Origin: Macrolepiota albuminosa | Lineage: Eukaryota > Basidiomycota > Agaricomycetes > Agaricales > Agaricaceae | Assembly: GCA_027475525.1 (NCBI GenBank) | Contig: JAMWFC010000012.1 | Coordinates: 33,831-97,830 of the forward strand | Reading direction: 5' to 3' | Length of the DNA: 64,000 nucleotides | Made by a program: the position numbers and the translations under genes | The notes under the pieces: model-generated | Databases searched by the model: none | Seen by the model: only the letters and a program-made list of their open reading frames with translations | What the model was told of the DNA's origin: nothing | Shown here: piece after piece, positions 30,189 through 50,092 of the stretch | Layout of the letters: each line of letters opens with the position of its first letter | Numbering within the stretch: the stretch's first letter is position 1

Positions 30189-31231
30189 TGATAGGCTTCT
30201 ACTCGGACTGAGCGCATCAAGGGACATTATAGGCCGACCAACACTTGACACACTAAAGGCTCTAGCAACCAGCCTTGGGTACAGAGCAGCCCTAGCGCGG
30301 GCGCTCTATGGCAAGACTTGTCCATTCATCTCAATCACCAGTATCAGCCCCTCAGCGCACTCCACTCAGTTACTTTGAAGACCAAGAAGACTCAGGACTC
30401 ATAGCGCTAGCATAACGGCGGGAGGGGACTCTGACCAAACCCCGATCAGTACTGGAAGGAGTTAGCAATTGGCGCTGTCAATCACCGAGGCACCTCAATC
30501 AGAAGTCTAAAAGAATCAATGACGACGAGACAGGATACACGCAGACCCGACATTTAAATCTATCAAAAGATGGTACAATGTTTAGCGCCGGAATTAGCGC
30601 TCACGGCGTCTGTCAAGGATTCCCCGACCATACCCCGGGATGGCATGGCCAATTAAATTACATCAAAAAGTGAGCAAACTCGTACCACTTCTAAGTAGTT
30701 TTAGAGTCGCCGTTGGTCGCCGTCACCCATGTGCTGCAGGTCGCCGTTGACAGGTGGCCGTTAGCTACAGTCACAAAGGGAGGTGCTAAGCGGTAGCGCC
30801 GTCAATGGACTTATTTTGGAAATAATGTAGCGCATAGTATAAAAACTAGCTACTTGCCATGTATATACCAATGAACCGTAACCTCTTGAGCACCCAGTTA
30901 CACTTAGCATTCAAATCGCGCTAGCGTTGCCTGACTTTGCCACCAAGTTCGGCGCTAGCTTCGTCTATCTCGTCTTCGTCGTTTACGGTGCCACCTACAG
31001 GCACGCTACGCTGCGCTATTCGTTTCTTTCTCTATAACTTCTCCTAAACTACGACGCTTACCACTTGCTAGGTAGCATCCGAGGCGCTATCGTCTAGCGC
31101 ATCGCCCTACCACCTCCGCTCGAGCACACCGGGACCCTGCCAGGACTCCTCACAAACCCGTACGCCAGGCGCTGGAGACGGCGTTGTACTGCGTATACGT
31201 CCAGCACACCCAACCACAGTTGGCGTCATCA
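30189..31231 (+). repeat. Gyp-B 5' LTR
   Basis: TGATAGGCTTCT to GGCGTCATCA, 1043 bp. A TATAAAA box lies at 30838-30844. A candidate primer-binding site starts tggagcccaccgcg at 31235, three bases after the LTR; I could not assign the tRNA. Confidence 0.93.
30838..30844 (+). promoter_or_regulatory. TATA box in Gyp-B LTR
   Basis: tataaaa within catagtataaaaactag, also at the equivalent position of the 3' LTR (43097-43103) and conserved in the ancient LTR (agtataaaagatagc, near 10168). Conservation over that divergence supports a promoter role. Confidence 0.55.
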
Positions 31232-31622
31232 TTTTGGAGCCCACCGCGAGGGGTTCTATTGAGGCAGAATTCCGCCGGAAACTCGAGCCCAGCGACAGCG
31301 CCGCCTCCTATTGGAGAGTGCGTTTGAGCAAACCTTAACTGAGTCACCACACTTACCAGGCGCGCTACCGAGGCAGACTTTAGATCAGGAGCTTGAAGCC
31401 GCTCCAGATAGCTTGGCTGAAAGCTTCTTCCCATTTTCCCGACCGTTCGAATACTTAGCAGGTGAAAACCATACACCGCTTACTCCTTTGGAAGAGCTGT
31501 CTAGGTCATTATCGCCAGAACCTAGCGACTCAGAATTACCCGAGCCAGTACCGACTACAACCCCGCCAAGCGAAACTACCACTAACACTACTATTCCCAC
31601 CACGACGTCGACGCCAGCTAGT

Positions 31623-33908
31623 ATGGAGCAGGCAAACACACCGCGTATGCCGCCAAGAAACCACTTCTCGTCGCCAAAATGGGACGAGACGAAACCTCGC
31701 GAGCTAACACAGTATTTCCGAGAATTGGAATATTTATTACGCGACTGCCGAGTCACCGACAACACACAAATGAAAGAATACGCCGCCAGATACGTTTCCT
31801 ACGATACCGCGGAATCCTGGACGGGACTGGATGAGTTTCAAGGATTAACACGAGAGGCGGTGCCAAGGTCGTTTACCTACGAGGAATGGAAAAAGGCGAT
31901 CATTAAACTGTACCCTGGCGCTGAGGAATCCACGCGCTATACCGTCCTTGAAATCCAGAAACTGGTACAGGATACCTTCGCAACGGGCATTTATACACTA
32001 GGCACGCTATCTACTTATTATCGAGACTTCCAGCGAATTGCAAGATGGCTAGTACAGAATGGCAAACTCTACAGGAACGAGGAACGGCGCTTGTTTCAAC
32101 AAGGCATTCCAACATCACTTTGGACTCGTATAGCTCGTCGCTTAGAAATTCTTAAGTCCGACCACCATCCTGAGGAACCCTACGATATAGAAGACGTCTT
32201 TGAAGCGGGTAAATGGATACTGAAAGGCACGGATACTGGCATCCCCTTCCAGCGACCTTCTAGCACTGATAACGGAGGAAAGGCGCCACCTGTTGCGGCG
32301 CCCGCACCTAGCGCAACTAACAATCAGGGAGGTTTTGTCAAGAAGGAGGACCTGGAAAACGCAGTCAACACGGCTGTCGCAAACGTTATGAGCAAATTGG
32401 AAACGTTAATCTCGACTAGCCTTAATGCGCCACGAGGTAATATGCAATCCGGCCCTTGTCACTTCTGTGGTGAGGCAGGACATACGATGACTCGCGGACG
32501 CTGCGCTATCCTCGAACAATACCTGCGCCAAGGAAGAGCACGCCGAGGCGCCGACGGGAAAATAGTCCTACCCTCCGGCGCTAACATCCCTCTATATCCT
32601 GAGCACCGAACCTTCCAGGGGCGAATTGATGAATGGCACCGACGTAACCCTGGGAACTTAGCGACGGGCAATCTCAATAGTACGGCCGCAGCGGAGGCAG
32701 AAACAACTCCACAACAGGCGCTAATCCATGAAGTACTCCAGCTTAACGCTGTTAGCGAGCAACCGACGTTGTCACGAGAGGAGAGGATCGAGACGTTGGA
32801 AAGGGAGCTAAAGTCGCTAAAGAATCAGGTTTTCGATGGTGTCGAGATTAAAAAGAGCAAGCAACCGTTGAAAGACTATAGACCTTCAGGCGCTACGACC
32901 GATCCAGCACCTGCAAAGCCTTCGAATTCCAGTGTCAACGACGACACACCTGATACGGCCAAAGCACCAGCTAGCACGGAACCGCCACTACACCCGTATT
33001 CAGGACTTGCTGGTAACTACGCTCCGCCTATCAATCGAAACTTTGGAGCGCCAGACAAGCCAGCAGGAGGCTACCGACCAACGGCACCAATCTACGACAT
33101 AGAAAAATCTAAGCAAGTATTCGATCGTATTATGAAGAGTCAAGTCACGATGTCGGTAGGGGAGCTATGCAGTGTGGCGCCAGACGTCAGGAATCAGATG
33201 CGTACAGCGGTAACCCCTCGACGGAACGTAGCTAACAATGTAACGGCGGTGGACGAATGCGACGACGCGCTACCGGGATTCGCGTACATAACCGAGACGG
33301 TCGCGTCGGAAATCAAAGAAGAGGCCGCGCCACCCAAAGAAGCTACGTCCATTGACCCGGTCGAAACTTACCTTAAGTCGCTAAGATCTAGCGACGATCC
33401 CGCCGTCCTCACTGTGGCCCAAGACTCTCACGCGATTCGCTCGATTATGTTGACAGTTGATGGAAAAAGCGAGATAGAATCTATAGTGGACAGCGGATCA
33501 CAGATTATTTCAATGGCTGCCGACGTCGCTAACGAGCTTGGCATCATTTACGACCCGACCATCATTCTTAATATGCAAAGCGCTAACGGCACTATTGATC
33601 GATCCTTGGGAATGGCTCGTAACGTGCCATGCGCTGTTGGCGATCTTACGTTTTACCTTCAAATACACATTCTTAGATCGCCTGCGTACGACTTATTATT
33701 AGGGAGGCCCTTCGACGTCTTAGCCCGATCAGTCGTCAAGACGACGTCTGAAGACAAAACGACGCTAACTATTAGCGACCCTAACTCGGGCGTCAGAAGA
33801 ACGGTACCAACATTTCCACGGGGGAAATTCCAGAAACCGGGACCGAGAAAGCGACCTTATGTTAGCGACGACCCTTGCGAGTGTTTTCCGGCGCCATCGA
33901 GGAGATGA
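31623..33908 (+). CDS. gag: Gyp-B Gag-protease
   Basis: Intact frame, 761 codons from ATG 31623; the same frame is open from 31311 without another ATG. Capsid-like region (KYWDE-type start, then TQYFRELEYLLRD, TARRLEIL-type helices) at residues 1-210. Knuckle CHFCGEAGHTMTRGRC at about 275-290 with longer His-Cys spacing than canonical. A coiled segment ERIETLERELKSLKNQVF lies at about 375-395. Retropepsin-like domain with VDSGSQIISM at about 620 and a conserved YDLLLGRPF at about 695. It assembles the particle and processes the polyprotein. The stop TGA overlaps the pol ATG (ATGA, 33905-33908). Confidence 0.9.
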   Translation: MEQANTPRMPPRNHFSSPKWDETKPRELTQYFRELEYLLRDCRVTDNTQMKEYAARYVSYDTAESWTGLDEFQGLTREAVPRSFTYEEWKKAIIKLYPGAEESTRYTVLEIQKLVQDTFATGIYTLGTLSTYYRDFQRIARWLVQNGKLYRNEERRLFQQGIPTSLWTRIARRLEILKSDHHPEEPYDIEDVFEAGKWILKGTDTGIPFQRPSSTDNGGKAPPVAAPAPSATNNQGGFVKKEDLENAVNTAVANVMSKLETLISTSLNAPRGNMQSGPCHFCGEAGHTMTRGRCAILEQYLRQGRARRGADGKIVLPSGANIPLYPEHRTFQGRIDEWHRRNPGNLATGNLNSTAAAEAETTPQQALIHEVLQLNAVSEQPTLSREERIETLERELKSLKNQVFDGVEIKKSKQPLKDYRPSGATTDPAPAKPSNSSVNDDTPDTAKAPASTEPPLHPYSGLAGNYAPPINRNFGAPDKPAGGYRPTAPIYDIEKSKQVFDRIMKSQVTMSVGELCSVAPDVRNQMRTAVTPRRNVANNVTAVDECDDALPGFAYITETVASEIKEEAAPPKEATSIDPVETYLKSLRSSDDPAVLTVAQDSHAIRSIMLTVDGKSEIESIVDSGSQIISMAADVANELGIIYDPTIILNMQSANGTIDRSLGMARNVPCAVGDLTFYLQIHILRSPAYDLLLGRPFDVLARSVVKTTSEDKTTLTISDPNSGVRRTVPTFPRGKFQKPGPRKRPYVSDDPCECFPAPSRR

Positions 33909-36808
33909 GTGATGAGGATCATGGAGATGAAGCGCTTATCTTGGACTATAACCATCGGACTGGGCAAGTAAACTTTATATCCTATACCCCTTTAGCCCAT
34001 GAAATCTTGAATTCTTCTTCGTCGCTTACTAGTGACGCGTTATCCTACTTATACCTCACTGCGTCAGATATTACTGAAAACCTTTCAACAGACACTTATT
34101 TCGTTTCTACTCCCGACTCTAAAGAATCTTTGATATCAGGTTTCGCTAGAAACCATGACTCTATTTATAATACGTTTGCTAACAATAGTACCCCTAAGCG
34201 CAAAGGGGTTCAGGTCAAGAAGAAATATAAACCCGTAGCGCTTAAAACGAAGCCGGTAGCGAGCGCCGTACCCGAGGAATTTCGCATCGAAAGAAAAATA
34301 ATAGGCGACCCTTTGGCTACCCTGCCAAAACTCGATCCGAATCCACCACCCTTTGAACCAACAGGACGATTTACAGAAGAACGAAAGGCGCTATTTCTTA
34401 GCGCCCACGATACCGGCTTCCTCTCGACGGAGGAGATGAACGTACTAGTCGACATCATGCAAAAACAGAATGAGGCTTTTGCATGGGAGGACTCAGAACG
34501 CGGTAAACTTAGAACTGACTTCTTTCCACCAGTGGTCATCCCAACCATACCGCACGTACCCTGGACTGAGCATAACCGACCCATACCCCCGGGCATCGAA
34601 GCCGAAGTCTGCCAAATTATTCGCTCCAAGATAGCGGCAGGTGTATACGAGCCTTCTAATTCGGCCTACCGCTCGAGGTGGTTCTGCGTACTAAAGAAAA
34701 ACGGGAAGCTACGTATAGTTCACAGCCTAGAACCGCTAAACAAAGTCACCATTCGTCATTCAGGGGTACCGCCATTTCCCGATCACGTCGCTGAATCTTT
34801 CGCGGGACAAATATGTGGCGCTACCCTGGATTTGTACGTAGGCTACGACGAGCGCTTAATCCATCCTTCCTCTCGCGACTTGACGACATTTCAAACACCG
34901 TTTGGGGCGCTACGACTAGTCACACTTCCTATGGGATGGACAAACTCGGTACCGATATTTCACGACGATATTACGTTTATCCTACAGCCCGAAATACCCC
35001 ACCATGTGCTCAGTTTCATAGACGACGTAGGAGTTAAAGGCCCGAAGGATTGGCGATTGGTGGATGGCAAGCCCGAAGTTCACCCGGAAAATCCTAATAT
35101 TCGCATGGCGCTATGGGAATTCTTTCAACTGGTTAACCGAGTACTTCAGCGCATGAAGTATTGTGGCGGGACGTTTTCAGGGCACAAGCTCGTTCTTTGC
35201 GCACCGCAGTTTAAAATTTTGGGGCACGTTTGCACGCCAGAAGGCAGGATTCCAGAAAAGAGCCGATTAGCGCTGTTGGAGAAATGGGGGGTCTGTCATA
35301 ACCTCTCGGAAGTTCGCGCGTTCTTGGGCACTGTAGGGGTGCTGCGCATGTTCATACACCATTTTTCTCATCGCGCAAATGCCCTTAATCGCCTAACCCG
35401 TTCAGGGGTCCCCTTCGAATTCGGACCCGATCAAATCAATGCCCAGAAGGACTTAGTAAAGGCGCTACAGGAAGCGCAACCATTGGTACCCATTGACTAT
35501 ACTACCGCCGATCCCGTTATACTTGCTGTTGACACATCATATATCGCCGTTGGCTTCTTCTTATGCCAGTGTGATAGCGTGAACCGGAAAATCAGGCGCT
35601 ACAATCGTTTCGGATCGATTACCCTTAACGACCGAGAATCGCGCTACAGTCAGCCCAAGCTAGAGTTATATGGCTTGTTTCGATCGTTTCAGGCGCTGCG
35701 CATGTACCTCATTGGGGTACGAAATCTCATTGTCGAGGTTGACGCACGATACATCAAAGGAATGCTTCAGAACCCTGATGTTCAACCGTCGGCCAGTATG
35801 AACCGCTGGGTAGTAGCGATATTAATGTTTCACTTCGAGTTAGTACACGTCAGAAGTGCATTCCACGGGCCGGACGGATTATCTAGGCGACCCAGACAAC
35901 CGGAAGATGAAGCGCTAGACGATAGCGACAACGATGTATTTGACGATTGGATTGATCGATTGCATGGTTTCATGCACATCATTCAGCTGCCTATTCTGGC
36001 GCTTCGCGAAGACCAACCAGTTTCAAATTGGCTTCACCCTATTGTTCCGTACCAGCCCCGACCATATCAGGCGTCATCAACTTTTTACACGGCCAGTATC
36101 TATAACGTCGCTAAGCCATCTAACGATCTAAAGATAGTCGAGGAACCAAGACCCTTGAGAGAAGACAGTCAGAACCTGCCATATTCGGCGGTACCTCGAA
36201 GCGCCAAAGCTAAGTCAGAAGATCAGCGGGTGGACCAGGTTAGGAAGTGGCTACAGGATTTGCAACGACCATCAGACCTTACGGATACGGAATACGCCAC
36301 CTTCATTCGATACGCGACGACCTTCTTTATAGTGGAAAACCGACTTTGGCGACGAAATAGAGATGGCGCCCACAAGCTAGTAATTAAACCGGACAATCGA
36401 ATTAGAATTCTACACGCTATGCACGATGACTTGGGACACCGTGGACTCTACGCAACAAGAGCGAACCTTTTGGAGCGCTTCTGGTGGCCTCAAGTTAGCG
36501 CCGATATTGCGTGGTATATTCGCACTTGTCATCTCTGTCAAATCCAGCAGACACGTCAGGTTCTTATTCCCCCAACAGTAGCGACCCCAGCGCCGCTATT
36601 TGGAAAAATATATATCGACACCATGCACATGCCCAAGTCAGGGCGCTACAAGTATATCATTCAAGGAAGGTGTTCCTTGGTACATTGGCCGGAGTTCCGT
36701 ATGCTCCAACGAGAAAATACAGACGCTATAGCTAAGTGGCTCTTTGATGTTCCTTGGTACATTGGCCGGAGTTCCGTATGCTCCAACGAGAAAATACAGA
36801 CGCTATAG
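33905..36808 (+). CDS. pol: Gyp-B Pol: reverse transcriptase, RNase H, start of integrase
   Basis: Frame from ATG 33905, offset -1 from gag. RT blocks: SRWFCVLKKNGKLRIVHSLE, ATLDLYVGYDE, FGALRLVTLPMGWTNSV, and catalytic FIDD in LSFIDDVGVKG. Connection domain HVCTPEGRIPEKSRLALLE. RNase H with AVDTSYIAVGFFL and ESRYSQPKLELYGLF. Integrase zinc finger: GHRGLYATRANLLERFWW, then CHLCQIQQ. First catalytic D of the core in YIDTMHM. The frame runs off at the 77-bp duplication (36671-36824). Integrase resumes at 36825 in another frame, and even after removing one copy a 1-nt offset remains. Confidence 0.9.
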   Translation: MSDEDHGDEALILDYNHRTGQVNFISYTPLAHEILNSSSSLTSDALSYLYLTASDITENLSTDTYFVSTPDSKESLISGFARNHDSIYNTFANNSTPKRKGVQVKKKYKPVALKTKPVASAVPEEFRIERKIIGDPLATLPKLDPNPPPFEPTGRFTEERKALFLSAHDTGFLSTEEMNVLVDIMQKQNEAFAWEDSERGKLRTDFFPPVVIPTIPHVPWTEHNRPIPPGIEAEVCQIIRSKIAAGVYEPSNSAYRSRWFCVLKKNGKLRIVHSLEPLNKVTIRHSGVPPFPDHVAESFAGQICGATLDLYVGYDERLIHPSSRDLTTFQTPFGALRLVTLPMGWTNSVPIFHDDITFILQPEIPHHVLSFIDDVGVKGPKDWRLVDGKPEVHPENPNIRMALWEFFQLVNRVLQRMKYCGGTFSGHKLVLCAPQFKILGHVCTPEGRIPEKSRLALLEKWGVCHNLSEVRAFLGTVGVLRMFIHHFSHRANALNRLTRSGVPFEFGPDQINAQKDLVKALQEAQPLVPIDYTTADPVILAVDTSYIAVGFFLCQCDSVNRKIRRYNRFGSITLNDRESRYSQPKLELYGLFRSFQALRMYLIGVRNLIVEVDARYIKGMLQNPDVQPSASMNRWVVAILMFHFELVHVRSAFHGPDGLSRRPRQPEDEALDDSDNDVFDDWIDRLHGFMHIIQLPILALREDQPVSNWLHPIVPYQPRPYQASSTFYTASIYNVAKPSNDLKIVEEPRPLREDSQNLPYSAVPRSAKAKSEDQRVDQVRKWLQDLQRPSDLTDTEYATFIRYATTFFIVENRLWRRNRDGAHKLVIKPDNRIRILHAMHDDLGHRGLYATRANLLERFWWPQVSADIAWYIRTCHLCQIQQTRQVLIPPTVATPAPLFGKIYIDTMHMPKSGRYKYIIQGRCSLVHWPEFRMLQRENTDAIAKWLFDVPWYIGRSSVCSNEKIQTL

Positions 36809-36824
36809 CTAAGTGGCTCTTTGA
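36671..36824 (+). repeat. Exact 77-bp tandem duplication in Gyp-B integrase
   Basis: 36671-36747 and 36748-36824 are identical and adjacent, starting tgttccttggta. It breaks an otherwise near-intact pol. Confidence 0.95.
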
Positions 36825-37661
36825 GACGTTATCTGCAGATGGGGAGCCCTTCATGAGATCGTCACAGACAATGGAGCGCCAATAGTTAAGGCGCTCACTT
36901 ATCTTGCCAAGAAGTACAACATTCAACACATACGGGTTTCTGGTTACAACAAGCGCGCCAACGGAATCGTAGAAAGGCCTCATTTCGACGTTCGACAGGC
37001 GCTATTTAAGGCGGTCGATGGTGACGAAAGTCGCTGGAGCGAAGCGACTTATTCGGTCTTCTGGTCAGAGAGGGTTACCGTACGAAAAAGGATGGGTTGT
37101 TCACCCTACTACGTGGCGACAGGCACCCATCCACTCCTCCCAGCCGACATAGTGGAAGCTACTTACTTACAGCCACCCCCGAATTCAATACTATCTTCCA
37201 CCGACATGATTGCTAGGCGCGCTATAGACTTACAGCGACGCATGGAGGATCTCGAGCGCTTACACGAAGTAGTATTTCAAACTAGACGACAAGCTGCGCT
37301 ACGATTTGAAAGCGAGCACAGCGCCACGATTAGAGACTACAACTTCACCTCTGGCGCCCTCGTACTAATGCGCAACTCAAAGATCGAAGTTACCCATAAC
37401 AAAAAGATGCGACCTCGGTATCTGGGACCCCTAATAGTGGTTTCCCGCAATAGGGGAGGCGCCTATGTACTCTGCGAGTTGGACGGCTCAGTTTTGCATC
37501 GACCAGTAGCGGCGTTTCGACTCATCCCCTACTTAGCGCGGGAACACATTCCCTTACCTTCGTCAGCGCTGGACATTGACACGGCTAAACTACGAGAACT
37601 GGAAGAAACGGAGTTAGTGGATGATGACGAGACCCCTGTTGACGACGACGAAGAACAGTAA
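36825..37661 (+). CDS. Gyp-B integrase, C-terminal part
   Basis: Open frame with EIVTDNGAPIVKAL (second D), NGIVERPHFDVRQAL (catalytic E), GCSPYYVATGTHPLLP, and a GPY/F-type module (MRPRYLGPLIVVSRNRGGAY). It ends in an acidic tail (VDDDETPVDDDEEQ). Only the first few codons after the tandem duplication are out of register with pol, so this is one polyprotein interrupted by a duplication or assembly error. Confidence 0.88.
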   Translation, partial: DVICRWGALHEIVTDNGAPIVKALTYLAKKYNIQHIRVSGYNKRANGIVERPHFDVRQALFKAVDGDESRWSEATYSVFWSERVTVRKRMGCSPYYVATGTHPLLPADIVEATYLQPPPNSILSSTDMIARRAIDLQRRMEDLERLHEVVFQTRRQAALRFESEHSATIRDYNFTSGALVLMRNSKIEVTHNKKMRPRYLGPLIVVSRNRGGAYVLCELDGSVLHRPVAAFRLIPYLAREHIPLPSSALDIDTAKLRELEETELVDDDETPVDDDEEQ

Positions 37662-37809
37662 ATGAAGGCGAAGGACGAGGCGCTAGGTGTTAGCGCCCCC
37701 GTTAAGTAAACTTAGGTCATGTTTCCCTTTCGGAAGGCATATTGGATGGCATAAATAGCTATGGTACAGGCGAGGACACAAAATCAACTACGGCTACTAC
37801 GTTACGAGC

Positions 37810-38527
37810 TACGCTGAAGAAGACCGGCGACGAGAACCTCGGACTCGCTCCCTGGGCCGCCTAAAGGAGGGAGGACCGCCTGAAGGAGGAAGAGGGGCGC
37901 CTGGTGTAGGCACCGGAATGCTCGAAGGCGGCGCGTTGCGAGGTACGGCGGGAGGAATGCAGGATGAAGGTACTGGAGCGCTAGGAGTTGGCGCAGGAGG
38001 AGCGCCTGGAGGAGGGGCAGCGAGTTCGGAGGAAAGGTCCCACTCCTCGTAGGAGGGCTGAAGCGAGGGCGGGAAAGGAAAGACCACGCGGTCGAGGACT
38101 GCCCTACGGGCACGGGACTCAACCAGGAGCGGAAGGGGAAGCCATGAAAGGCTCTTGGCAACGGCATGGAATTAGCAACCCAAGGTCAGAAGGAAAGAGC
38201 TATTGACTAACCAAACTGCCAGTCTCCCGAAGAAGGCTCGCCAAACTTGCTGCGCTAGGCGTAATAGTCGACTGCGAACACATGAGCAACAAACAAGATA
38301 CGCGCTAACAGGAGGCGAACCGTGACCAGAGACTCATCCTGGTCTATCATCCATTCGGTGGAGGCGTCCAACAGGATGCGATATCGGCGCACCAGGGTCA
38401 TGGTATTTCCGTTTTCATGAGGGAAACCCCCCGTAGGCATAATAGCCAGGAAGTGTTCAATACGATCCAAGATCGCGGGGCGGTGAGGAAGTTCCGGATC
38501 TGGGAGAAGTATGGAGGGGGCTGGCAT
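37810..38527 (-). CDS. Gyp-B antisense gene 4 (paralogue of gene 3), exon structure unsettled
   Basis: An open frame from ATG 38527 to 38255 encodes 90 residues (MPAPSILLPDPELPHRPAIL...). Its middle aligns with antisense gene 3: L-x-R-x-x-x-F-L-x-x-x-P-x-G-x-x-P, then RR-x-x-x-L-x-x-A-x-E-W. A further frame downstream (about 38120-37810) is very proline-rich with the block SYEEWDLSSELAAP and looks like a second exon, but I could not settle the junction. No known domain. The strand is opposite to gag-pol. Confidence 0.5.
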
Positions 38528-38769
38528 GATGAAATACTAACAAACTTAAGGGCGGCAGAGCCCATAAAATATCTCTAGCTACTTGCAGGGTCGCAGCGAC
38601 TTAGGAACTTTTACATGGGCGAAACAATCACGAGGGGGGGGGGGCGACAACAACGATGCATTTAATATACGACGACATTGGAAATCAAGAATCTAAAATC
38701 TGTCAGTTCTGTGGCGCTACGGAGAAGGGAAGATCACCTTACATAAACGACACGGGAGGCGGAAGCAAA

Positions 38770-39285
38770 TCAAGGAGCGGGCAACAGGAGGAGACGCGTC
38801 CCTCCGTCAGAGGGGCCACGAAAGAGGCGACCACCGGTAGAAGAACGAGGAGACTGGTGAAGAAGGCGCGGTTAGACAGGAAAAGAAAGGAGTAACGGGG
38901 TAAGGACAGACGGACCAGATAGTGGCTTTCTTCCAGCAGCAGCTCAAGACGCTCTCGCGTGGAGGTGGGAGGAATTTGCTTTAATTAGCGACTGTCAGCA
39001 AAGAAGAGGGCGAAAAAGGCAGGAGCGCACCTGAAAAATGCGACTCCAGGCCTTCTCCATACCAAACTGCATCAGAGGTTTGCTATCCGACCAGATCTCA
39101 CAGGCCGCACGCAGCAACTGGCAGCGACGACTTAATTCAAGGACGCCATCGTCCAGTTCTGGCACGCTGCCAGCAGGATAGTGGTGAAGGAAAGAGGTGA
39201 CACGCTCTAGGAAAGTGGGAGGGTCCATCATGACGTGAGCACGATCACAGCGGGGAGTCCACACCAGGCCGGTCGGGCTGGTCAT
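38770..39285 (-). CDS. Gyp-B antisense gene 3, three exons
   Basis: Exons 39285-39031, 38978-38916 and 38853-38770 join into an intact frame of 133 residues. Both introns (52 and 62 nt) are GT-AG and phase 0. The first exon (LERVTSFLHHYPAGSVPELD..., RRCQLLRAACEIW) is clearly related to antisense gene 4, so this is a duplicated small-gene family inside one transposon. The last exon is S/G/R-rich. No known domain, no membrane segment or signal peptide seen. Confidence 0.6.
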
Positions 39286-39807
39286 CGCGAAGACTGATGA
39301 GATCCAGTTGATGCATATGCAATTTATAGGACACGGCTAGAGTTAGAACGGCGACAGCGTGGGAGGACGTTTCACAAAGAACGAGGACCCTGACGAAGAT
39401 ACTAGCCAATGAGAGGCGCTTGACTCATGGTTGGACCGCGCAGAAAGGAAATCGCCATTCTAGACCTAGCGCTTATGCTCACCATCACCGAATAGCCACA
39501 AAGCGATCACTGGTTTTCTATTTCTTTATACGCGTTACTTCTTACATGGATCCGCTTATTTATTTCCAGACAGTTCCTATTTTCTACTTAGGCTGGCGCG
39601 GTAATGGCTATTGGACCGCGCCGGCAACAGAGGTTTTTGCGCCATGATGATCTACTGAGCGTTTCCCCTTTTACTTATTTTCTTTTTGATTACTTACAAA
39701 CTGACGATTTGAAGCCAAGGGAAGCGTTTATTATAGGATCACATACTACAAAGTTCGTATCAAAAAGACTAAGTCCATAAAAGTTTAAAAGCGCTAAGGG
39801 TCGGCAA
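39286..39807. other. Spacer between antisense genes 2 and 3
   Basis: About 520 bp without a supported gene. It should carry the promoter of antisense gene 3. It contains a repeated ttggaccgcgc word (39434 and 39611). Confidence 0.4.
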
Positions 39808-40486
39808 CTACGGATCATACTCGGGAAGGGCGGGATCGCCCAAAGGAAGCAAGTCCCCGTCCTGGATCGAGTTACTCGCTTGCCACTCAAGCGCAGCCGT
39901 AATATCGTCATGAAGCTCGAGAAGGAGGCGCTCGCGGCGAGCTAAGGTGGAAACGCGAGGACGCAGGTTGGCAAGTTCGCGACCAACGGCTTCGGTCGCA
40001 TCCTCAATATGGCGGAGTTGCTGGCGAAGGTCGGCAGAAGGGCGGAGAGGGGTAACAGGATAGGAGAACTCGTCCCCGAGCCAAGGGAAGGCGTCACCAG
40101 AAACTCGCATGGCGGGAGGGGGAGTCCAAAAGGGATCGAACTTATGGAAGGTTAGAAAAGGGGAGAAAAGGGGGAACAAACAAAAACGGACGTACCCGGA
40201 CAGTTACAGGCGCACGGGGTGTCCACTCATGGCGCTCGTCGCCGGGGGACATAGCTCTGGCGGAAGAAAGATGGATGCCGTAGGGAGGCAAGTATCTCCA
40301 GCGGCGACGACGCTCACCTTCCGGCACCAGGGTTCCTTCGGATTCCAGCGCCGCAGAAGTCTCGTGACTACTAGGAAAAGAAGAGGAACTGTGGGGAGGA
40401 GTAAGGGACGGAGTGATAGGGAGAGCAACCGGAGTGTCGCTAGCCGCAACCGCCTCGGGGGCGGGGGTAGCGCCAGCGTCAGACAT
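39808..40486 (-). CDS. Gyp-B antisense gene 2, two exons
   Basis: ATG at 40486 (MSDAGATPAPEAVAASD). Exon 40486-40196 joins exon 40140-39808 through a 55-nt phase-0 GT-AG intron, giving 207 residues. The first half is P/S/A-rich with RRRRWRYLPPYG. The second exon has FDPFWTPPPAMRV, then predicted helices with leucine-heptad character (LRQQLRHIEDATEAVGREL, RRERLLLELHDDI). It may instead be the 3' end of antisense gene 1, because the frame is also open upstream. Function unknown. Confidence 0.55.
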
Positions 40487-40579
40487 AACGACATCTTCGG
40501 CAGCAGGGATAGCCACAACGACGGGAACCGGAGTGGGGGACCTATCAGTCAAGAAGTTAGCACGCGGAGAGAAGAGAAG

Positions 40580-42300
40580 TTAGGGAAATGCGTACTGGTT
40601 ACCACTGGGGTCACTCTGACGAGGGTTAGCGGCAATAGGGGGAGTAAGGCGAAGCAGGAGAGCGCGTACCGCCAACAGCGCATCGGCATCAACAACGGGC
40701 TCAGCTTCATCATCATCCTCTCCCTCGGCATCCCTCTCAGTGCCTTCCCCCTCATCCGTAGAAGACTCGGTCGAAGACAAAACCACAGGCGTAGCAGGCG
40801 CTAGCTCGCGGCGCTTACCAGGGCTCTTGCCAGGAGACGCGACAACAGGCTTACGCTTCAAAAGGACGGGACGACGAGGAGAGCGAGCAAAAGGTGCCGC
40901 CACGGTAGTACCATCCTGAGTAGTCGGCAGCGCCAGGCTGGCTGCGCTGATTACCGTGGGTTGGTGAGTAGCCGCCAAATCACGTTGCTGCAGCACGAAG
41001 TCCCGGGCGTTACGAACCAACACTGCGCGCTCATAGTTCCTTTGCATAATGGCGTCCCTACCACGTTCACGAGTACGAATCCTGTTGAAGGCGCAGCCTC
41101 GTTTCAACGCATCGCACCGATAGCAAGGCAGAGACGCGGTAGGAAACCAGCAGCCCTCAGGGTCGTTCTCAGACCAACACTTGTCACACTAAGAAAGAAG
41201 TCAGCGACGGCATAAACCTCCAAAGGGGCAAAACAGTGCTTACCACGCCAATCTTTGCCCTAAACGCGCGACGCTCCAAGGGCGCAACGGTAACCTTCTT
41301 CTTGCCGCCCAGTACTTGGACACCAGCCGGAACGCCGGTATCAATGACGGTAGTATCACGGCGAAGGCGCAAAAGGTCGCGAAGCTCCGCGTCGGTGAAC
41401 ATGGTCTGGTTAGGCGCCTATCGACATTAACATTTAGGCGCTAAAGTCAAGCGACAACAAGCAAAGCACTTACGACATACAAAGGGGGAACACGAGCAGG
41501 GAGATTGATCTGAAAGGGGGAGAAGTCAGAAAAATGGAGTAAGGAAGATAGGAAAAGAACGCACGGTACGTTTGGGAGGAGAACTAGCACGAGCAGGAGG
41601 CGCGCGTTCAATAACAATGGCAAAATTACGCGGAGGACCGTGAGAAGTTGGGCGCGTCGGGCCGGGTCGTGGCTCGCTACGAGAAACGGCAATGCGTTTG
41701 ATGGCCGAATGGGGAGGGGCAGTACGGACGGAAGAAGCAGCGCCACGAAAAGGGCTGCCAAGAACGGAAGGAGGCGGAACAGAAGTCGAAGAAGGAGGGG
41801 CGGTAGGAACAGAAGGGACAGTAGAGGCCGAGGGGGCAGTAGGAAGACTGGCGATGGTGGGAGACGTAGCAACCGACTACTCAAGGATTAACAGTGGAAA
41901 AAGGGGGGAGGAGAAGGAAGGACTTACTTCGCTGACCTCGGTGCTAGCCAGCAACGCGTCGATCTTGTCAGATAAGGAAGGAGCCTAGTATGGGCGCTGA
42001 ACCTTAGTGCCACAACGCCAAAATCAAACTTAGAAAACTTACGAAAAGGTCCGCGAAAGGGCGCAACCAATCGGCACCCTCAAACTCACGGTACCGGGCC
42101 ACGCACCACTCGCGAACCTCGTCACCCCGCTCCCAGGAACTGTCGGAGCCGCGGACCACGAGCCAGCGCCAATAGAGTTGCATAATACCAGGGACGGTTT
42201 GTGGCGCATCGGCGGGACTGACAGACTTAGCGCGATCAAATAAATAGGAGGCCTTAGCCAGGAAATTGCGGAGAGCAGAGGCGTCGAAAGAAGTGGACAT
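40580..42300 (-). CDS. Gyp-B antisense gene 1, six exons, Cys-cluster protein
   Basis: Exons 42300-42043, 41984-41928, 41876-41565, 41509-41474, 41417-41244 and 41188-40580. The first five lengths are all multiples of three; all five introns are 51-58 nt, GT-AG and phase 0; the joined frame is intact for 481 residues. N-terminus MSTSFDASALRNFLAKASYL with conserved-looking W/R residues (LYWRWLVVRG). The third exon is P/S-rich. The last exon opens with paired Cys motifs, C-x2-C-x8-C and C-x2-C-x6-C, suggesting a zinc-binding cluster; then basic (KRKPVVASPGKSPGKRR) and acidic stretches. It could be a nuclear or DNA-binding protein, but this is inference. The strand is opposite to gag-pol. Confidence 0.65.
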
Positions 42301-42438
42301 ACTGGAAAGATGGGAAGGAAAACACGGGGAAGTGAAGTACGGAAAACGACTTTTTATAAGGCGCCGGCGGCATTATACGGACCGTAGTGCAGTCAAATTA
42401 ACGACGGCGTTTGACTGAGGACAGTCAATTTTTCAGTT

Positions 42439-42447
42439 GGGGGGAGA
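42439..42447 (+). promoter_or_regulatory. Gyp-B polypurine tract
   Basis: ggggggaga immediately before the 3' LTR at 42448, the expected plus-strand primer. Confidence 0.8.
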
Positions 42448-43490
42448 TGATAGGCTTCTACTCGGACTGAGCGCATCAAGGGACATTATAGGCCGACCAA
42501 CACTTGACACACTAAAGGCTCTAGCAACCAGCCTTGGGTACAGAGCAGCCCTAGCGCGGGCGCTCTATGGCAAGACTTGTCCATTCATCTCAATCACCAG
42601 TATCAGCCCCTCAGCGCACTCCACTCAGTTACTTTGAAGACCAAGAAGACTCAGGACTCATAGCGCTAGCATAACGGCGGGAGGGGACTCTGACCAAACC
42701 CCGATCAGTACTGGAAGGAGTTAGCAATTGGCGCTGTCAATCACCGAGGCACCTCAATCAGAAGTCTAAAAGAATCAATGACGACGAGACAGGATACACG
42801 CAGACCCGACATTTAAATCTATCAAAAGATGGTACAATGTTTAGCGCCGGAATTAGCGCTCACGGCGTCTGTCAAGGATTCCCCGACCATACCCCGGGAT
42901 GGCATGGCCAATTAAATTACATCAAAAAGTGAGCAAACTCGTACCACTTCTAAGTAGTTTTAGAGTCGCCGTTGGTCGCCGTCACCCATGTGCTGCAGGT
43001 CGCCGTTGACAGGTGGCCGTTAGCTACAGTCACGAAGGGAGGCGCTAAGCGGTAGCGCCGTCAATGGACTTATTTTGGAAATAATGTAGCGCATAGTATA
43101 AAAACTAGCTACTTGCCATGTATATACCAACGAATCGTAACCTCTTGAGCACCCAGTTACACTTAGCGTTCAAATCGCGCTAGCGTTGCCTGACTTTGCC
43201 ACCAAGTTCGGCGCTAGCTTCGTCTATCTCGTCTTTGTCGTTTACGGTGCCACCTACGGGCACGCTACGCTGCGCTATTCGTTTCTTTCTCTATAACTTC
43301 TCCTAAACTACGACGCTTACCACTTGCTAGGTAGCATCCGAGGTGCTATCGTCTAGCGCATTGCCCTACCACCTCCGCTCGAGCACACCGGGACCCTGCC
43401 GGGACTCCTCACAAACCCGTACGCCAGGCGCTGGAGACGGCGTTGTACTGCGTATACGTCCAGCGCACCCAACCACAGTTGGCGTCATCA
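42448..43490 (+). repeat. Gyp-B 3' LTR
   Basis: 1043 bp, same length as the 5' LTR. By eye alignment finds 11 substitutions and no indels, all in the last 457 bp, ten of them cg versus tg or ca. Confidence 0.93.
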
Positions 43491-43572
43491 CCGGGGTACG
43501 CCAGGCGCTGGAGACGGCGTTGTACTGCGTATACGTCCAGCGCACCCAACCACAGTTGGCGTCATCACCGGG
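43419..43572 (+). repeat. Exact 77-bp tandem duplication across Gyp-B right boundary
   Basis: 43419-43495 and 43496-43572 are identical and adjacent. The unit contains the LTR end plus ccggg of the flanking Gyp-A LTR, so it arose after insertion, or in assembly. Confidence 0.95.
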
Positions 43573-44217
43573 AGAGGGGACTAGAGTCCGGGGGTTGTGG
43601 ATGAGAGTGGTTGGGGGCTAGAGGGGGTCGAGTCGTGAACCGGAGGTTCTAAGACGAGACCGAGTTAGTAACTTAAGAGTCGCGAAGTGCGTACCAAACT
43701 TATAGCACGCGAATACTAAGGTGTGCCAGTCGAAGCGTACCAAACGAGGCGTACTAGTCAAACAAGAGGGCACGCAATATCCAAGTAACAGTTATGCAAA
43801 GTATGTAATATCAAGACTAGCGAATACAACAAGGAACTACGCTATAAGTACTACGGGACCCGGTCTCGGGGTTCCGGGGTGTCTGGGATGGGCTCCGGGG
43901 GTCATTGAGTAGCGGCAGGGGCTGTATACCGGGATCGCGCGTGTGGGGCGCGCGATCAATTGGCGCGGAGGGAGCTGTGATGCGTGATAGCCGGAAATGG
44001 GCCGCGTGATCCGGTCGTTGATCGGGGCTGGTGGCGGCTGATGGCGGTGTCGTCGGTCGTGATGGCGGGGCGTGTTCTGTGGGGTCGGAGGGGGGGTCCC
44101 GGATGGTGTTCCGGGGGTGTCCTGGGGTGGGCCCGGAGGGGAGGGGTCGTGACAAAGGGTGCAGACCACAAGCACTTTAACTGCCTCTATTCAGTGGGTA
44201 GAAAGCTTGCTAGCCAA

Positions 44218-46817
44218 TGAAAACAATGAACTTGGGGAACCAGCAGAGTTCACCCACTCAAATTGATTCCAGAGAGATCAGCAAGGATGGTGTGGTTATT
44301 CTAGAGAAGGAGGCAGAGGATCTGGAGAAAGGTTTTCAAATTATGTAGATAACAACTATGATCATAGATAACTATATGCAGTATCACACTGTCCCTGAAT
44401 ACTAACTATTCACCTCACACTGAGCCCACAGACTGAGATGGATTTACTGCATCTGCAGATGACAGGTAATCTTGGTTTGGCTCCCCAACCAAGCTGGGAA
44501 ATGCCCAGGTGGCATTGTTTTTATGAGGATAGTGCCATTAGTAGCAGCCCTGCCTAAGTCTCTGATCTTGTCAGAGACATTACTCAAACCAAATCTTGAC
44601 ACAACAAGCTTATTTGAACAACTTATAGTCCAGGCAAGAGAGATCAATGGCCAGACCATTGATCAGGGCCTCAAGGATGGCCTGCAAGGGATTGGCAATG
44701 GAGTGCAGATAGACCAAACACATGTAGAAGTAGATAAAGCAATGATGTGTACAAATACTATATGTAACCGAAGTTACAAGCTAGAACTATCTTGTGTGTA
44801 TCACACAGTGCTAAATCAGACTGCAGTATTGGATTTGACTAGAACTAGAGTGAATACAAGATGTTGTCTTATGTAATACTATAAGTTGTGCTAATAGCAT
44901 CCTTGATGCATGACAATATGTTACATACCCCCCAATGAGACCAAATCCTCAGTCTTAAGTGAGAGGTGAATCTAGGAAGATGCATGAAAATGCATGGTGT
45001 TGAGTAATAACACATATGGCATAGCTGTTGGGAGTTAGTAATACTGTCACTGACAGGAGAGTCGAGCACAGGGTGTCATGCTGAGTCTTAGAACCTCTTA
45101 GTGCGCAAATGCACATACCAACTCAACAGCAAGTAAGCAAGATAAAATTAAAAAATAACAAAAAAATAAAACAGATGTCCGCTATATGTACATGCTACAC
45201 TGGAGTGCGTGTCAGCTTAAGAATGGTGGCTCGTGGGTCGCTCTGGACTTTAGCGTCGAGGTACTCCCAGTCCCCCGATCTCTAACCTGACTCTCTCCAG
45301 GTCAGCGGTCTAATCTCGCTCACCATCCCCACTGCCCCCCCTCTGTCCCTAGCACTGGCACTCGCTTTGACCGAGTCCCCTTGTTCATCCGTCCCTCTGC
45401 TTCTGACTCCTCCTCCTTTCCCGACGCAAGCACAAATACGACAGTGTACTCCCTGTTCCGGCTCCGCTTGCCTCAGGTCTATTGTCTATTCTCAAACTCG
45501 AGTACCCGAGAGGCTGTGATACCGGGTATGGGCACCTTTGCACAGCCTAATTCCTTTCCACATTCTCTAGCCATTGTCCTCCTATTCCCATCTCCCTTCC
45601 CTCATTTCTGTACTCCTCTTGTTGGTTTCGCCGTTTCATGGTGGTGCTGATTGTTTCGAGAGGTCGCACATGGGTGGCAGCGACTTTTTGACGGCGGGAC
45701 AGGAAAGGAATGGCAGGCTATGACGTTGATGGGACGGATCTCGGAGTTGTCCTGGGGCTGAGCACTGCCACCCACTCGGCTGTATCTTTGATCGTTTGCC
45801 CTTGCTCACACGCTTACTGCTCTGCTGGCCGGTCGTTGCACGATTTGGGGTGGGTTTTTCAAGGTCAGATTCCCTTCGTCTACAGTTATCAACGAGTGCT
45901 TATAGTTTTTTATCACCTTAGGGTATATTTTGGGGGAATCTGAGGCAGACGTATCAATATTCTTGGCATTTCGATCCAGCCCGGAAGTGGGACGCTGGGA
46001 CGCATATGAGGACGGGCATACCAAGACCCTCCAGGTTGCATAAAATAAGACATACTGGGATAATCCCAGAAAATTCATCACCACAATTCCGAGAATAACA
46101 GCTTCGAAATCCTCATCTCTCGCTCTATCCTTACATTCCTGCTCTGCGGAATTCCGTGCTTTTGGCGTCGTCAACGAAAAGGTGAACATCAACCACGACA
46201 CGTGGACAGCGTAGGAACGCCCTCCTCCACCCTCATTGCGAAGCCGTCAGTAACCAAGGACGTTCTAAGTTCCCTCGCGGAGAAAACGAATCTTAAAAGC
46301 CGTCGAGTCGCGGACACCAATCCTGACAGTTTCGAGATCCCCGCCTACGGCAAGAAAAATCGTACTTGTCCAGCTACATCCGCTTCATTCGACCTCGAAG
46401 ATATGGCCTTCAACGCAGGATTCCTGGAATGGCCAACCCTCTCCGCTCCCCATTACTTTTGGTATGATCTACTTCGTGATTATTCTTACAGTTGTCCCGC
46501 TACTGTGTGTTCCCATCTCCGGAGATATATAGACTATTACGATGTCTTCGATACTTGGCGCTTCCCAATCCTAGGGCTTACAACACTTCTTTCGATTGCG
46601 TGAACTTTGAATTACTATGTGAAAACATCGTTATGCACGCTGTTCCAGTCAGTGAACTAGTTCATCAATCATGACGATTATAAACAACTTTGTAACAAAA
46701 ACTCGAAACTCGGCGAATACTCACTGCCTTGCTCAAGAACAGCCTTGATAGCAAAGTCACATGCCTGTTAAAATTGACTACGCACAGCATTTGCTCTGTT
46801 ATCTCAGAGTTACTACA
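44218..46817. other. No confident gene
   Basis: Holds the G/R-rich continuation of the gag-like ORF (to about 44340), an unrecognised ORF at 44472-44876 (134 aa, ATG at its start but no known motif) and an open frame at 46202-46603 that lacks an ATG at its start. A pyrimidine-rich section lies at 45240-45650. The last few hundred bases should contain the NLR promoter. Confidence 0.4.
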
Positions 46818-49800
46818 ATGTCCACTGACCAACACGAAACCCTTGGAATGTCGCCACTTCGAGAGGGTAACGTTGGCATGGCTGGGGTATGTAGCCGGCT
46901 CAGTCCTTTACCTGGATGGATGTCCTGAACTTATTTCTAATAGGTTGTGCAAAGAAGAGCGACACGCTTTCAAAGATTTCAGAATCCAAGCCATGACCGG
47001 AACATATCAATCTTGAATAACACAATACAGACATTTACTCTTGTCAGTAACGCAGTACCTTTGCCGATAGTCAAGGGAGCGTTGTCAGCTGTTGCAGGAA
47101 TCCTCAGTATTGCCAAAGTATAACCATGGAACACTATCGAATTAAATCTTACATCTTCCTCAGAATACCATCGGAAATCGTGATGACTTCCAGGAGATTG
47201 TCGAGACATGTCAGATGATCGGCCTTGTTATTTGGCAGGCTACCTCCCAAACCCACGAACATCAGCTTGACGACACTGTCCGTCGTGCACTAATCGAGCT
47301 CAAAAGGTGAGACATTATCCCTTACTATTGTTAGCCCAATTACATCTCAAGTTCTGGACGTAATCAGTTCCCTGGATGTCATTCAAGATGCAGCTAAAGC
47401 AAAGGCCGAGAAGAATATAGTGTTCAAGGTCCTTGACATTACAAATAATCAGGAGGCCATTGTGAAAATGAAGGATGAGTTGAATCGTTTTCTAACCCTT
47501 TTCAACGTGAGTTATGATTGCCTTATTTGTTTCTTAACGGATTGTGATGAATTTATCCAGACTGAAGTTAACATGTCGACCAATATGAAAGTTGATAAAA
47601 CGAACATGAAACTTGACAAACTACTGGACGAGTTTCATACAGCAGTGAACTTCAATCCTCAGACGTATGCACCGACAAATGTCCACGAAGATTAGGCTCA
47701 TTTATTTCGTAGGGATTCTGGGGAACCTGATGTACTACCAAGTCGGCCGGCAGTCTTTTTCGGAAGGGACAATCTTGTCCAGAGTATCACCCAGTCTCTC
47801 CTCGATCGCCGCAAAGTCGCCCTCATTGGCCCAGGAGGTATCGGAAAAAGTACCATTGCCCGCATTGTTATAAATGACAAAAGTATCGCCTCCAGGTTCC
47901 AAGGTCGAAGATATTTTGTGCGGTTCGATGATATGGATGCTCGCCAGGTGAATTTGGGAACATTCCTTGACCGGATTGCAAGAACATTGGGATTAGCGAC
48001 TTCTGTCAATGCTCATAATTTGATATTAAAGGCAATTTCAGCATCGGACACACTCCTTGTCCTTGACAATGCTGAAACCTTCTTGGATGCCTCTGCTGAT
48101 GCTGGACGAATTGCAAATGTCATTGATGACTTCGGTGCAAGGCCAAATGTCGCCATCCTCATTACCACACGCACAACGGTATTGCCTCCAAACCTTGACT
48201 GGGTTAGATTACCGGTCCCTGTGCTTGAGGAGAGCGCTGCGTGTGAAGCTTTTCAAGCATACTACTCTTCCATTGAAACGTCGATCCTTACCAAACTACT
48301 CTCTGCTGTTGAATACCACCCTCTCTCCATTAATCTACTTGCACAAGCTGCGGTTCAGAACGAATGGTCGCCTCAACAGCTTCTTACTGCATGGGACCGT
48401 CAACGTGCAGCCTTACTCGAGGCTGGGGATGGAAAATCCCAAAGTCTTGCTATCACAATTGAGACGTCTCTCAACTCTCCCTCCTTCGTTGAACTTGGTG
48501 ACATAGTTCGTCATCTTTTGCACCTCATTGCGTTCCTTCCTCAAGGAATTAGCAATACATGGCTTGCTGCCACATCCTTTGGGGCATTGAACATTGAAAC
48601 TTGCGCAGGTGCTTTGTGCAAGCAATCCATTGCATACCGAAATGGCGACTTCATCACTCTTCTAGCTCCCATACGCCTTTACATATTGGATCACCATAAA
48701 AGAGATATCTCAATGAATCCAATGTTGAGAGAACTAAGGAGATATTATGCTGCCCACATTCAAGAGTCAAAAATTGTTCTTGCAGAAGACGTGAACATCG
48801 AACATGTCCTTAATCATTGGCTCCAGGACACTGGTGGGAACATGAAAACAATCCTCGATATATTGCGAACTATAGGCGATTTTTTGGATGTCCTCTATAT
48901 GCATCGACCACGACCGGTTTCTCTGCACCCCACTATAATTGCTTTGGATGTGTGCAAAATCCATAATACTGTGTCGTGCATGAATTTCGGCATGGCATTT
49001 CCGATTTTACAAAAACCTAAAAGAATCATAAAAAGCAAGTCGACCTGTCTACTTTGGATTTCCTTCCTTATGTATGTGGTTGGACAAATTGAAGATGCCA
49101 AAAACATACATGCACAAGCACGGGCACTCGCTTTTGAATATAGGGATTTGGATCAGCTCATTCAGGTTGACTATTGGCTCGCGTTATGTTATTTCAATCA
49201 AGGCGATTACCGGACCGCTGAAAAATTGTATGCAACAGCTTTGAACAATTGTTCGGGCCTTTCTACCCTGTTCAGACTTCATCCAAACACAAAGGCTGCA
49301 GTCGAACGTGAAATAATTAAAATCAATTTACTCAAAGGAAGGCCTGGTGCAATACAAAGCTACTTCAGCTTTCTGTCTACACTCAAGCAAAAACGTATTC
49401 AACTCGACAACATTTGCACAAATATCTATGCAGGATATCTTGAACTCCGCAATGGTCACTTAGATGTCGCACAACATTTTTTTGAGAAAGTTCAGGCAAG
49501 CGGCAATTGGAAATGGTTCATTGTGCTGGCCGATCTGGCTGATCAACAAGGCGACTATGCAAGGTCAAACACATTACGGGCACAGTTGCTTAAATTGATT
49601 GAACCGGAACCAACAAGTTGTGGTATCTTAATGAAAGGTTTACTCGCTGCATACTGGGCAAAAGAGGGTGACATGGAGCATGCTCGGGAATTGATCCTTC
49701 CTTTCTTTAAGCACACTACTGAACGTAACAATCCGCATGTTGTAGACCTGTATTACTTGGCTGGAATGGTTGAACTGACAGATGGGAACTTCGATAAAGC

Positions 49801-50092
49801 TGGGGATTACTTCCATGAAACAATTGAAATCAGTATGTCCCTCACAAGATTAGTTGAATGCACCCGCTCATATAGAGCACTTGGCGAGATTGCTGTGGTC
49901 AAAGGAGACTTGTTGAGTGCAAAGGAACATTTCAAAACCACTACCGAGCTGTGCAAGATCATGGATCTCCCAAGGGAACACCTGTATTTTGACCATGCAT
50001 GTTTTATCCCTCACAAAAGATTCAATGGATGGAATCTGTATCAAGAAGGTCATGTCATGTTCAGGTACATTGGAGACAATGCTCAAGCATGA
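46818..50092 (+). CDS. NLR: HeLo/MLKL-like N-terminus, NB-ARC, TPR-like repeats
   Basis: Six exons (46818-46886, 46944-47117, 47164-47306, 47368-47506, 47561-47664, 47713-50092) total 3009 nt, an intact frame of 1002 residues. All introns are GT-AG, 46-61 nt. N-terminal helices (about 25-190) carry NAVPLPIVKGALSAVAGIL and NIVFKVLDITNNQ, the pattern of fungal MLKL/HeLo-like bundles. NB-ARC (about 200-460): FFGRDNLV, P-loop GPGGIGKST, Walker B LLVLDNAE, sensor ILITTRTT, then YHPLSINLLAQA. C-terminal two-thirds: helical pairs with TPR-like alternation (ALCYFNQGDYRTAEKLYATA, GMVELTDGNFDKAGDYFHE, ALGEIAVVKGDLLSAKEHF). Such proteins sense non-self or damage and can trigger cell death in fungi. The role of this one is inferred. 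Confidence 0.85.

What the first reader, a model, noticed from the sequence alone, without database searches (positions are those of the whole stretch)
37810..42300. Spliced antisense gene cluster carried inside a young Ty3/gypsy element
Between integrase and 3' LTR of Gyp-B the minus strand holds at least three genes that splice into intact frames (six, two and three exons) plus a fourth related to the third. All eight introns are 51-62 nt, GT-AG and phase 0, and exon lengths are multiples of three, which is hard to get by chance. Introns antisense to the genomic RNA are not spliced during retrotransposition, so such genes can ride in the element with introns kept. One protein has paired Cys motifs suggesting zinc binding. 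That they help the element (integration, silencing escape, regulation) is inference.
Basis: partly seen in the sequence, partly recalled or inferred. Interest (0 to 1): 0.9.

Follow-up and report, generated by a model that had tools for sequence, protein, structure and literature searches.

The report
Spliced antisense genes in fungal retrotransposon
A jumping gene in a mushroom-type fungus carries three extra genes, written backwards and interrupted by introns, that have been kept intact by selection across many copies, which suggests the element uses them for something beyond plain copying.

Summary
The finding is real, with one correction. Between integrase and the 3' LTR of a Ty3/gypsy-type element (30189-43490) the minus strand carries three spliced genes, not four. 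B: 39285-38770, 3 exons, 133 aa. C: 38527-37809, 3 exons, 203 aa, distantly similar to B. In 28 copies from the unnamed 100-Mb genome, A is open in 25 and its GT/AG dinucleotides are kept in 28. In 15 divergent copies each intron position is kept in 12-14, and dN/dS is 0.13-0.38 (A) and 0.14-0.35 (B). Of 150 listed B places, 73 have a listed integrase within 4 kb; all 73 are antisense to it on the expected side. One sampled element of another subfamily has gene A without B or C, and an annotated Termitomyces protein is a full-length homologue of A. B+C have been exchanged as a block between element lineages. Antisense genes at this site are known in plant elements and Boty; this multi-gene, multi-exon, apparently separately promoted block in a basidiomycete is a new variant. 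There are no expression data; function (nuclear accessory proteins) is inferred.

The parts
30189..31231 (+). 5' LTR, 1043 nt
   Evidence: direct repeat of 42448-43490, 11 mismatches, TG...CA ends, CCGG on both flanks
31263..33908 (+). gag-protease frame
   Evidence: Pfam aspartyl protease
33866..37661 (+). pol (RNase H, integrase); frame interrupted by the 77-nt tandem duplication 36671-36824, an apparent assembly artefact
   Evidence: Pfam RT_RNaseH and Integrase_H2C2; duplication
42043..42300 (-). gene A exon 1
41928..41984 (-). gene A exon 2
41565..41876 (-). gene A exon 3 (Pro/Ser-rich, variable length)
41474..41509 (-). gene A exon 4
41244..41417 (-). gene A exon 5 (conserved MFTDAELRDLL stretch)
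40596..41188 (-). gene A exon 6 with the six-cysteine motif
40196..40541 (-). gene A exon 7
   Evidence: fused with exons 6 and 8 in L037
39808..40140 (-). gene A exon 8 and stop
42353..42358 (-). TATAAA 58 nt upstream of gene A
39727..39732 (-). AATAAA after gene A (possible poly(A) signal)
39031..39285 (-). gene B exon 1
38916..38978 (-). gene B exon 2
38770..38853 (-). gene B exon 3 and stop (a two-exon reading to 38739 is also open in the window)
   Evidence: intron after residue 106 placed in 14 of 15 divergent loci
39323..39328 (-). TATAAA 43 nt upstream of gene B
38321..38527 (-). gene C exon 1
38212..38271 (-). gene C exon 2
37809..38153 (-). gene C exon 3 and stop
42438..42447 (+). 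polypurine tract next to the 3' LTR
   Evidence: sequence; near-identical stretch in L037
42448..43490 (+). 3' LTR (its end overlaps the 77-nt duplication 43419-43572)

Best explanation
The element carries a conserved accessory gene block antisense to gag-pol. Gene A is the old core: a relative occurs without B and C in a sampled element of another subfamily. B and C form an exchangeable cassette and may stem from an old duplication. Each gene is expected to be transcribed from its own small promoter (TATAAA 43-58 nt upstream of B and A) and spliced by the host. In the sense genomic RNA the introns are reversed, so they are not removed, and each new copy keeps the genes with introns. The proteins act in trans for the element: most likely A is a nuclear, zinc-coordinating, coiled-coil nucleic-acid binder that regulates transcription or silencing of the element, with B and C as small helical partners. 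SHOWN: gene structures, conservation, purifying selection on the frames, antisense position, cassette exchange. INFERRED: transcription and splicing, zinc and nucleic-acid binding, regulatory role, benefit to the element.
For: Gene A open in 25 of 28 copies, GT/AG kept in 28 of 28. In 15 divergent loci each A intron is placed at the window's position in 12-14, B introns in 13 and 14, C introns in 13 and 13. dN/dS 0.13-0.38 for A, 0.14-0.35 for B, 0.16-0.36 for C where computable (12 of 15); codon-position bias p = 6e-40 for A against L032. Order C-B-A antisense in 8 of 8 divergent loci, integrase opposite in 7; 73 of 150 listed B places have a listed integrase, all antisense and on the expected side. 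TATAAA at -56 to -58 of A in 12 of 13 and at -43 of B in 13 of 13 divergent loci with a readable ATG. Gene A relative alone in L037; Termitomyces homologue. Block exchange of B+C.
Against: No transcript or protein evidence. No Pfam, PDB or fold match, so DNA or zinc binding is unproven. Gene C is read through to about residue 200 in only 7 of 15 divergent loci, and A has no stop in 8 of 15, so many copies are decayed. Gene C in the window has no TATAWA upstream, and 5 of 14 divergent loci lack it too. Young-copy dN/dS for C scatters up to 1.5 on few substitutions. Purifying selection could in principle act on a host use of the proteins.
Confidence: 0.68

Rival explanations
1. Captured host genes carried as passengers: an ancestor of the element picked up a host gene cluster, which is copied along without being of use to the element.
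For: Introns are kept, as expected for genomic rather than cDNA capture; the proteins resemble no known retroviral protein.
Against: Frames and splice sites are kept over synonymous divergence near or above 1 (A against L032 dS 0.89; B dS up to 2.4); same order and site in 8 of 8 divergent loci; gene A relative also in another subfamily (L037). No free-standing host copy was found, though the lists were capped.
Confidence: 0.12
2. The antisense transcripts, not the proteins, matter: antisense RNA pairs with genomic RNA and tunes silencing of the element.
For: Antisense non-coding transcripts of retrotransposons are described (PMC7264820 section 8).
Against: Selection acts on codons (third-position bias, dN/dS) and on splice sites, which a purely RNA function does not need. 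It could coexist with protein function.
Confidence: 0.08
3. A host-serving role: the element's antisense genes were taken over by the fungus and selection comes from host benefit.
For: Purifying selection alone does not say who benefits.
Against: Selection is seen across many dispersed copies and across subfamilies, with decay in old copies, as expected for element genes; a host gene would be kept at one locus.
Confidence: 0.06
4. Chance: accidental open frames in GC-rich sequence joined by accidental GT-AG pairs.
For: GC-rich sequence gives long frames on several strands; a 246-aa sense frame lies at 40064-40804.
Against: Conserved intron positions, codon-position bias, an independently annotated homologue, same order in 8 of 8 divergent loci.
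Confidence: 0.01

Closest known systems
Plant gypsy elements with antisense ORFs between pol and 3' LTR (aORF-3R): maize Grande gene23, rice RIRE2, Silene Retand
   Same: Antisense position between pol and 3' LTR, kept in most copies, own promoter reported for gene23, nuclear or DNA-binding role suggested (PMC7264820 sections 5 and 8; PMC11963269 passages).
   Different: No introns are mentioned in the text of either paper (term counts); Retand proteins carry the TRP28 domain, while A, B and C match no Pfam family. Here three genes with 14 exons.
Boty elements of Botrytis with the antisense gene brtn
   Same: Fungal gypsy element with one extra antisense gene (PMC7264820 section 5; PMC8365987 passages).
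   Different: An ascomycete element, one gene as cited; Zhao et al. 2011 itself was not seen, and brtn was not compared with A, B or C.
HTLV-1 HBZ
   Same: Antisense gene expressed from the 3' end of a retroelement, nuclear regulator (PMC11963269 passages; PMC7264820 section 8); that its mRNA is spliced is recalled, not from a call.
   Different: An animal retrovirus, single gene; no homology tested or implied.
Hypothetical protein C0992_007505 of Termitomyces sp. T32_za158 (P0001)
   Same: Homologue of gene A along its length: N-terminal domain, six cysteines, C-terminal domain.
   Different: 38% identity overall; its 3058-bp contig could not be examined, so whether it lies in an element is unknown.

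Membership tests
Ty3/gypsy LTR retrotransposon | two LTRs with TG...CA ends and short target-site duplication | tested here: met
   30189-31231 and 42448-43490, 11 mismatches in 1043; CCGG on both sides
Ty3/gypsy LTR retrotransposon | protease, then RT/RNase H, then integrase | tested here: met
   Pfam protease in the first frame; RT_RNaseH before Integrase_H2C2 in the second; no RT-core family was listed at E <= 0.01
Ty3/gypsy LTR retrotransposon | RT phylogeny within Ty3/gypsy | not tested
   no tree was built
[quoted passage not shown]
Antisense additional-ORF elements (aORF-3R) | selection on the frame comparable to other element proteins | tested here: inconclusive
   purifying selection on A, B, C shown; gag-pol was not measured for comparison
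Antisense additional-ORF elements (aORF-3R) | antisense transcription from its own promoter | not testable with these tools
   TATA boxes only; no RNA data
Retand-type antisense proteins (TRP28) | TRP28 (PF04195) domain | tested here: not met
   no Pfam family for A, B or C at E <= 1
Zn(II)2Cys6 (Gal4-type) regulator | match to the Zn(II)2Cys6 profile | tested here: not met
   no Pfam match for the Cys region or P0001 at E <= 10
Zn(II)2Cys6 (Gal4-type) regulator | six cysteines with Gal4-like spacing (spacing rule recalled) | tested here: inconclusive
   C-x2-C-x8-C-x8-C-x2-C-x6-C in window, L037, P0001 and 14 of 15 divergent copies; the first x8 differs from the recalled x6
Boty brtn | sequence homology to brtn | not tested
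   no brtn sequence was fetched

The most novel reading that the evidence does not exclude
A lineage of basidiomycete gypsy elements has evolved a retrovirus-like accessory gene complement written wholly antisense and kept with its introns: a core zinc-type regulator (A), old enough to have a relative in Termitomyces and in an element without B and C, plus an exchangeable B+C cassette swapped between element lineages, each gene with its own promoter, serving to control the element's expression or to evade silencing.
Probability: 0.5. Interest if true: 0.78.

Novelty: new variant of a known kind. Interest (0 to 1): 0.64.

Why it matters
LTR retrotransposons are usually described as gag-pol only and are masked before gene prediction, so accessory genes that are spliced and on the other strand are easily missed. 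This element shows how introns can be kept through retrotransposition, offers dozens of natural copies on which selection can be measured, and makes an open question, what antisense retrotransposon genes do, testable by RNA-seq and gene removal in a fungus. The exchange of the B+C block suggests that these genes matter in competition between elements or with the host.

Tried and rejected
Pfam for A, B, C, for the Cys region (6 sequences) and for P0001: no match. PDB by sequence: only weak hits, best E 0.12 and 0.35. AlphaFold2 of B exon 1 (mean pLDDT 62, helices) and of P0001 (57.5; well-scored long helices, poorly modelled Cys region): Foldseek of the P0001 model found nothing at E <= 0.001; the B model was not searched. 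The whole-protein search with A found nothing (perhaps low-complexity words, not tested); restricted to residues 223-375 it found one protein, from Termitomyces. The search with the B profile found only P0002, 100% identical to the window's own B over the covered part. Viral contigs: 27 pattern matches, 0 relatives. No Rfam match in 29000-45000, no tRNA in the window. The reading of A as two genes was rejected. Exon 8 fragments aligned badly to P0001 and were dropped, with other fragments trimmed, before folding. The bacterial and archaeal genome collection was not scanned. Mutation pattern of old copies and gag-pol dN/dS were not measured.
Full report
WHAT IS THERE. The window lies in an unnamed 100.1-Mb genome of 129 contigs. 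A Ty3/gypsy-type element occupies 30189-43490: two 1043-nt LTRs differing at 11 sites, gag-protease (31263-33908) and pol with RNase H and integrase (33866-37661). Between the end of integrase (37661) and the polypurine tract lie about 4.8 kb. On the minus strand this stretch reads as three genes. Gene A (42300-39808): 8 exons, 702 aa, introns of 58, 51, 55, 56, 55, 54 and 55 nt. Gene B (39285-38770): 3 exons, 133 aa, introns of 52 and 62 nt. Gene C (38527-37809): 3 exons, 203 aa, introns of 49 and 58 nt.

Two independent results support this: in L037 the region from the cysteine motif to the C terminus is one open frame of 426 aa without introns 6 and 7, and the annotated Termitomyces protein P0001 (626 aa) aligns from the N terminus through the cysteine motif to the last residues, 38% identical overall.

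IS IT CHANCE? Twenty-eight copies were compared, the window's own (L001) included. Gene A is open in 25 of 28; L019 and L026 carry 77 nt more in exon 3 than most copies, L010 is off by single bases. GT and AG of all seven A introns are kept in 28 of 28; introns 1-3 vary in length out of multiples of three, while exon lengths in the 25 intact copies vary by multiples of three. In the 21 copies of the young group (L001-L019, L027, L028) gene B is intact in 20 (not L010) and gene C in 18 (not L010, L015, L018). In the other seven, L020-L026, B and C are too different for simple projection and were read with a spliced aligner.

DIVERGENT COPIES. In 15 divergent loci (L020-L026, L029-L036) it places the seven A introns after residues 86, 105, 209, 221, 279, 477 (phase 2) and 592 in 13, 13, 13, 13, 14, 14 and 12 of 15; the B introns after 85 and 106 in 13 and 14; the C introns after 69 and 89 in 13 and 13. 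It also placed extra introns: 77-nt ones where a tandem duplication lies, others in variable stretches, and several near the end of B, whose last residues are therefore uncertain. Gene A has no stop in 8 of 15, B in 13 of 15; C has none before about residue 200 in 7 of 15. Older copies are thus often decayed, L029 and L036 most (9 stops each in A).

SELECTION. Gene A, window against L032 (no stop): dS 0.89, dN 0.117, ratio 0.13; against L033 (one stop) 0.16; against the other 13 loci 0.17-0.38. Gene B: 0.14-0.35 in 15 of 15. Gene C: 0.16-0.36 in 12 of 15; in L029, L030 and L036 dS was saturated. An earlier whole-region alignment gave 0.44 and 0.48 for C against L021 and L026. Among near-identical young copies A gives about 0.17-0.45, while B (0-0.66) and C (0.36-1.5) rest on few substitutions. 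Gene A differences to L032 fall 92, 74 and 284 at codon positions 1, 2 and 3 (p = 6e-40). Decay after insertion raises such ratios, so selection on active lineages is probably stronger. gag-pol was not measured.

POSITION IN THE GENOME. Protein searches of the own genome gave 150 listed B places (of 189 matches), 61 main A rows (of 178 matches) and 139 integrase rows; all lists were capped to the best candidates. Of the 150 B places 73 have a listed integrase within 4 kb on the expected side, all 73 on the opposite strand; none has one within 5 kb on the other side; 77 have none listed. Of the 61 A rows 29 have a listed B downstream (all same strand), 33 a listed integrase (all opposite strand), 13 neither. 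In the 8 divergent loci fetched for their B genes the order C, B, A holds in 8 of 8, with integrase opposite in 7; L036 shows none in the stretch held. Free-standing host copies are not excluded.

A GENE A RELATIVE ALONE. Of 139 integrase rows 67 have no listed B, many of them at about 87% identity. One such element was sampled (L037): between the end of integrase and a near-identical polypurine-tract region lie about 3 kb with a gene A relative (293 of 640 aligned residues identical, no stop in that reading) and no detectable B or C (best E 0.78 for C, none for B at E <= 10). Introns match at residues 86, 221 and 279; introns 6 and 7 are absent. This is one example, not a survey.

CASSETTE EXCHANGE. 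Along L020, L021 and L034 identity to the window is 92-100% per 200 nt from 39800 (gene A) to the LTR and 92-99% at 36000-36600 (pol), 84-93% over the rest of integrase from 36800, but 49-67% over 37600-39200, genes B and C. Accordingly B has dS 1.8-2.0 in these loci against 0.07-0.08 for A. L029 shows another mixture: integrase 95%, A 72%, B 75%, C 58%. Template switching during reverse transcription is the expected route; it was not tested.

PROMOTERS. TATAAA lies 56-58 nt upstream of gene A in 12 of 13, and 43 nt upstream of gene B in 13 of 13 divergent loci with a readable ATG (2 of 15 had none in each case). Background for TATAWA is 5.4% per 90-nt stretch of this region. For gene C, TATATA at -45 occurs in 9 of 14; the window's C has none.

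PROTEINS. The six-cysteine motif C-x2-C-x8-C-x8-C-x2-C-x6-C is kept in the window, L037, P0001 and 14 of 15 divergent copies, not L036. In the P0001 model the best-scored parts are long helices, the C-terminal one included, consistent with a coiled coil; the cysteine region is poorly modelled and overall confidence is low. There is no Pfam match and no convincing PDB or fold match. A zinc-binding, dimerising nucleic-acid binder is the most natural reading, not a result.

KNOWN OR NEW. [quoted passage not shown] PMC11963269, passages; PMC8365987, passages). The listings of six library searches showed by title no paper on spliced antisense genes in a basidiomycete LTR retrotransposon; most listed papers were not opened and the library lacks most subscription journals. 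Hence: a new variant of a known kind.

LIMITS. No RNA data; organism unnamed, 'mushroom-type fungus' being inferred from the Termitomyces homologue and the short-intron genes; cross-species evidence is one protein; lists were capped; the assembly carries 77-nt tandem duplications (61 of 67 exact tandem repeats of period 30-200 in the 38 sequences held; L001 repeats part of the window) that break frames, including pol in the window.

Noticed in passing
36671-36824, 43419-43572, 5548-5701, 6584-6737, 8704-8857, 8932-9085, 9207-9360, 21578-21731, 59628-59781: Exact tandem duplications of 77 nt. 61 of 67 exact tandem repeats of period 30-200 in the 38 sequences held have period 77, which points to an assembler overlap artefact that breaks otherwise open frames.
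   Followed up: partly
L037 (G000:C26:1229800-1234300): One of many elements with integrase about 87% identical to the window's and pol frames listed at up to about 1264 aa: a possibly young sister subfamily with a shorter antisense region holding a gene A relative only.
   Followed up: partly
42413-42447: Short inverted repeat TGACTGAGGACAGTCA just before the polypurine tract, conserved in L037.
   Followed up: no
24057-29767: Minus-strand frames that look copia-like by eye, flanked by direct repeats (24057-24446 and 29379-29767) that look like LTRs.
   Followed up: no
47696-50092: 798-aa frame that looks like a nucleotide-binding NLR-type protein with helical repeats (by eye).
   Followed up: no
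22092-22583: Minus-strand frame resembling a Tc1/mariner-type transposase (by eye).
   Followed up: no
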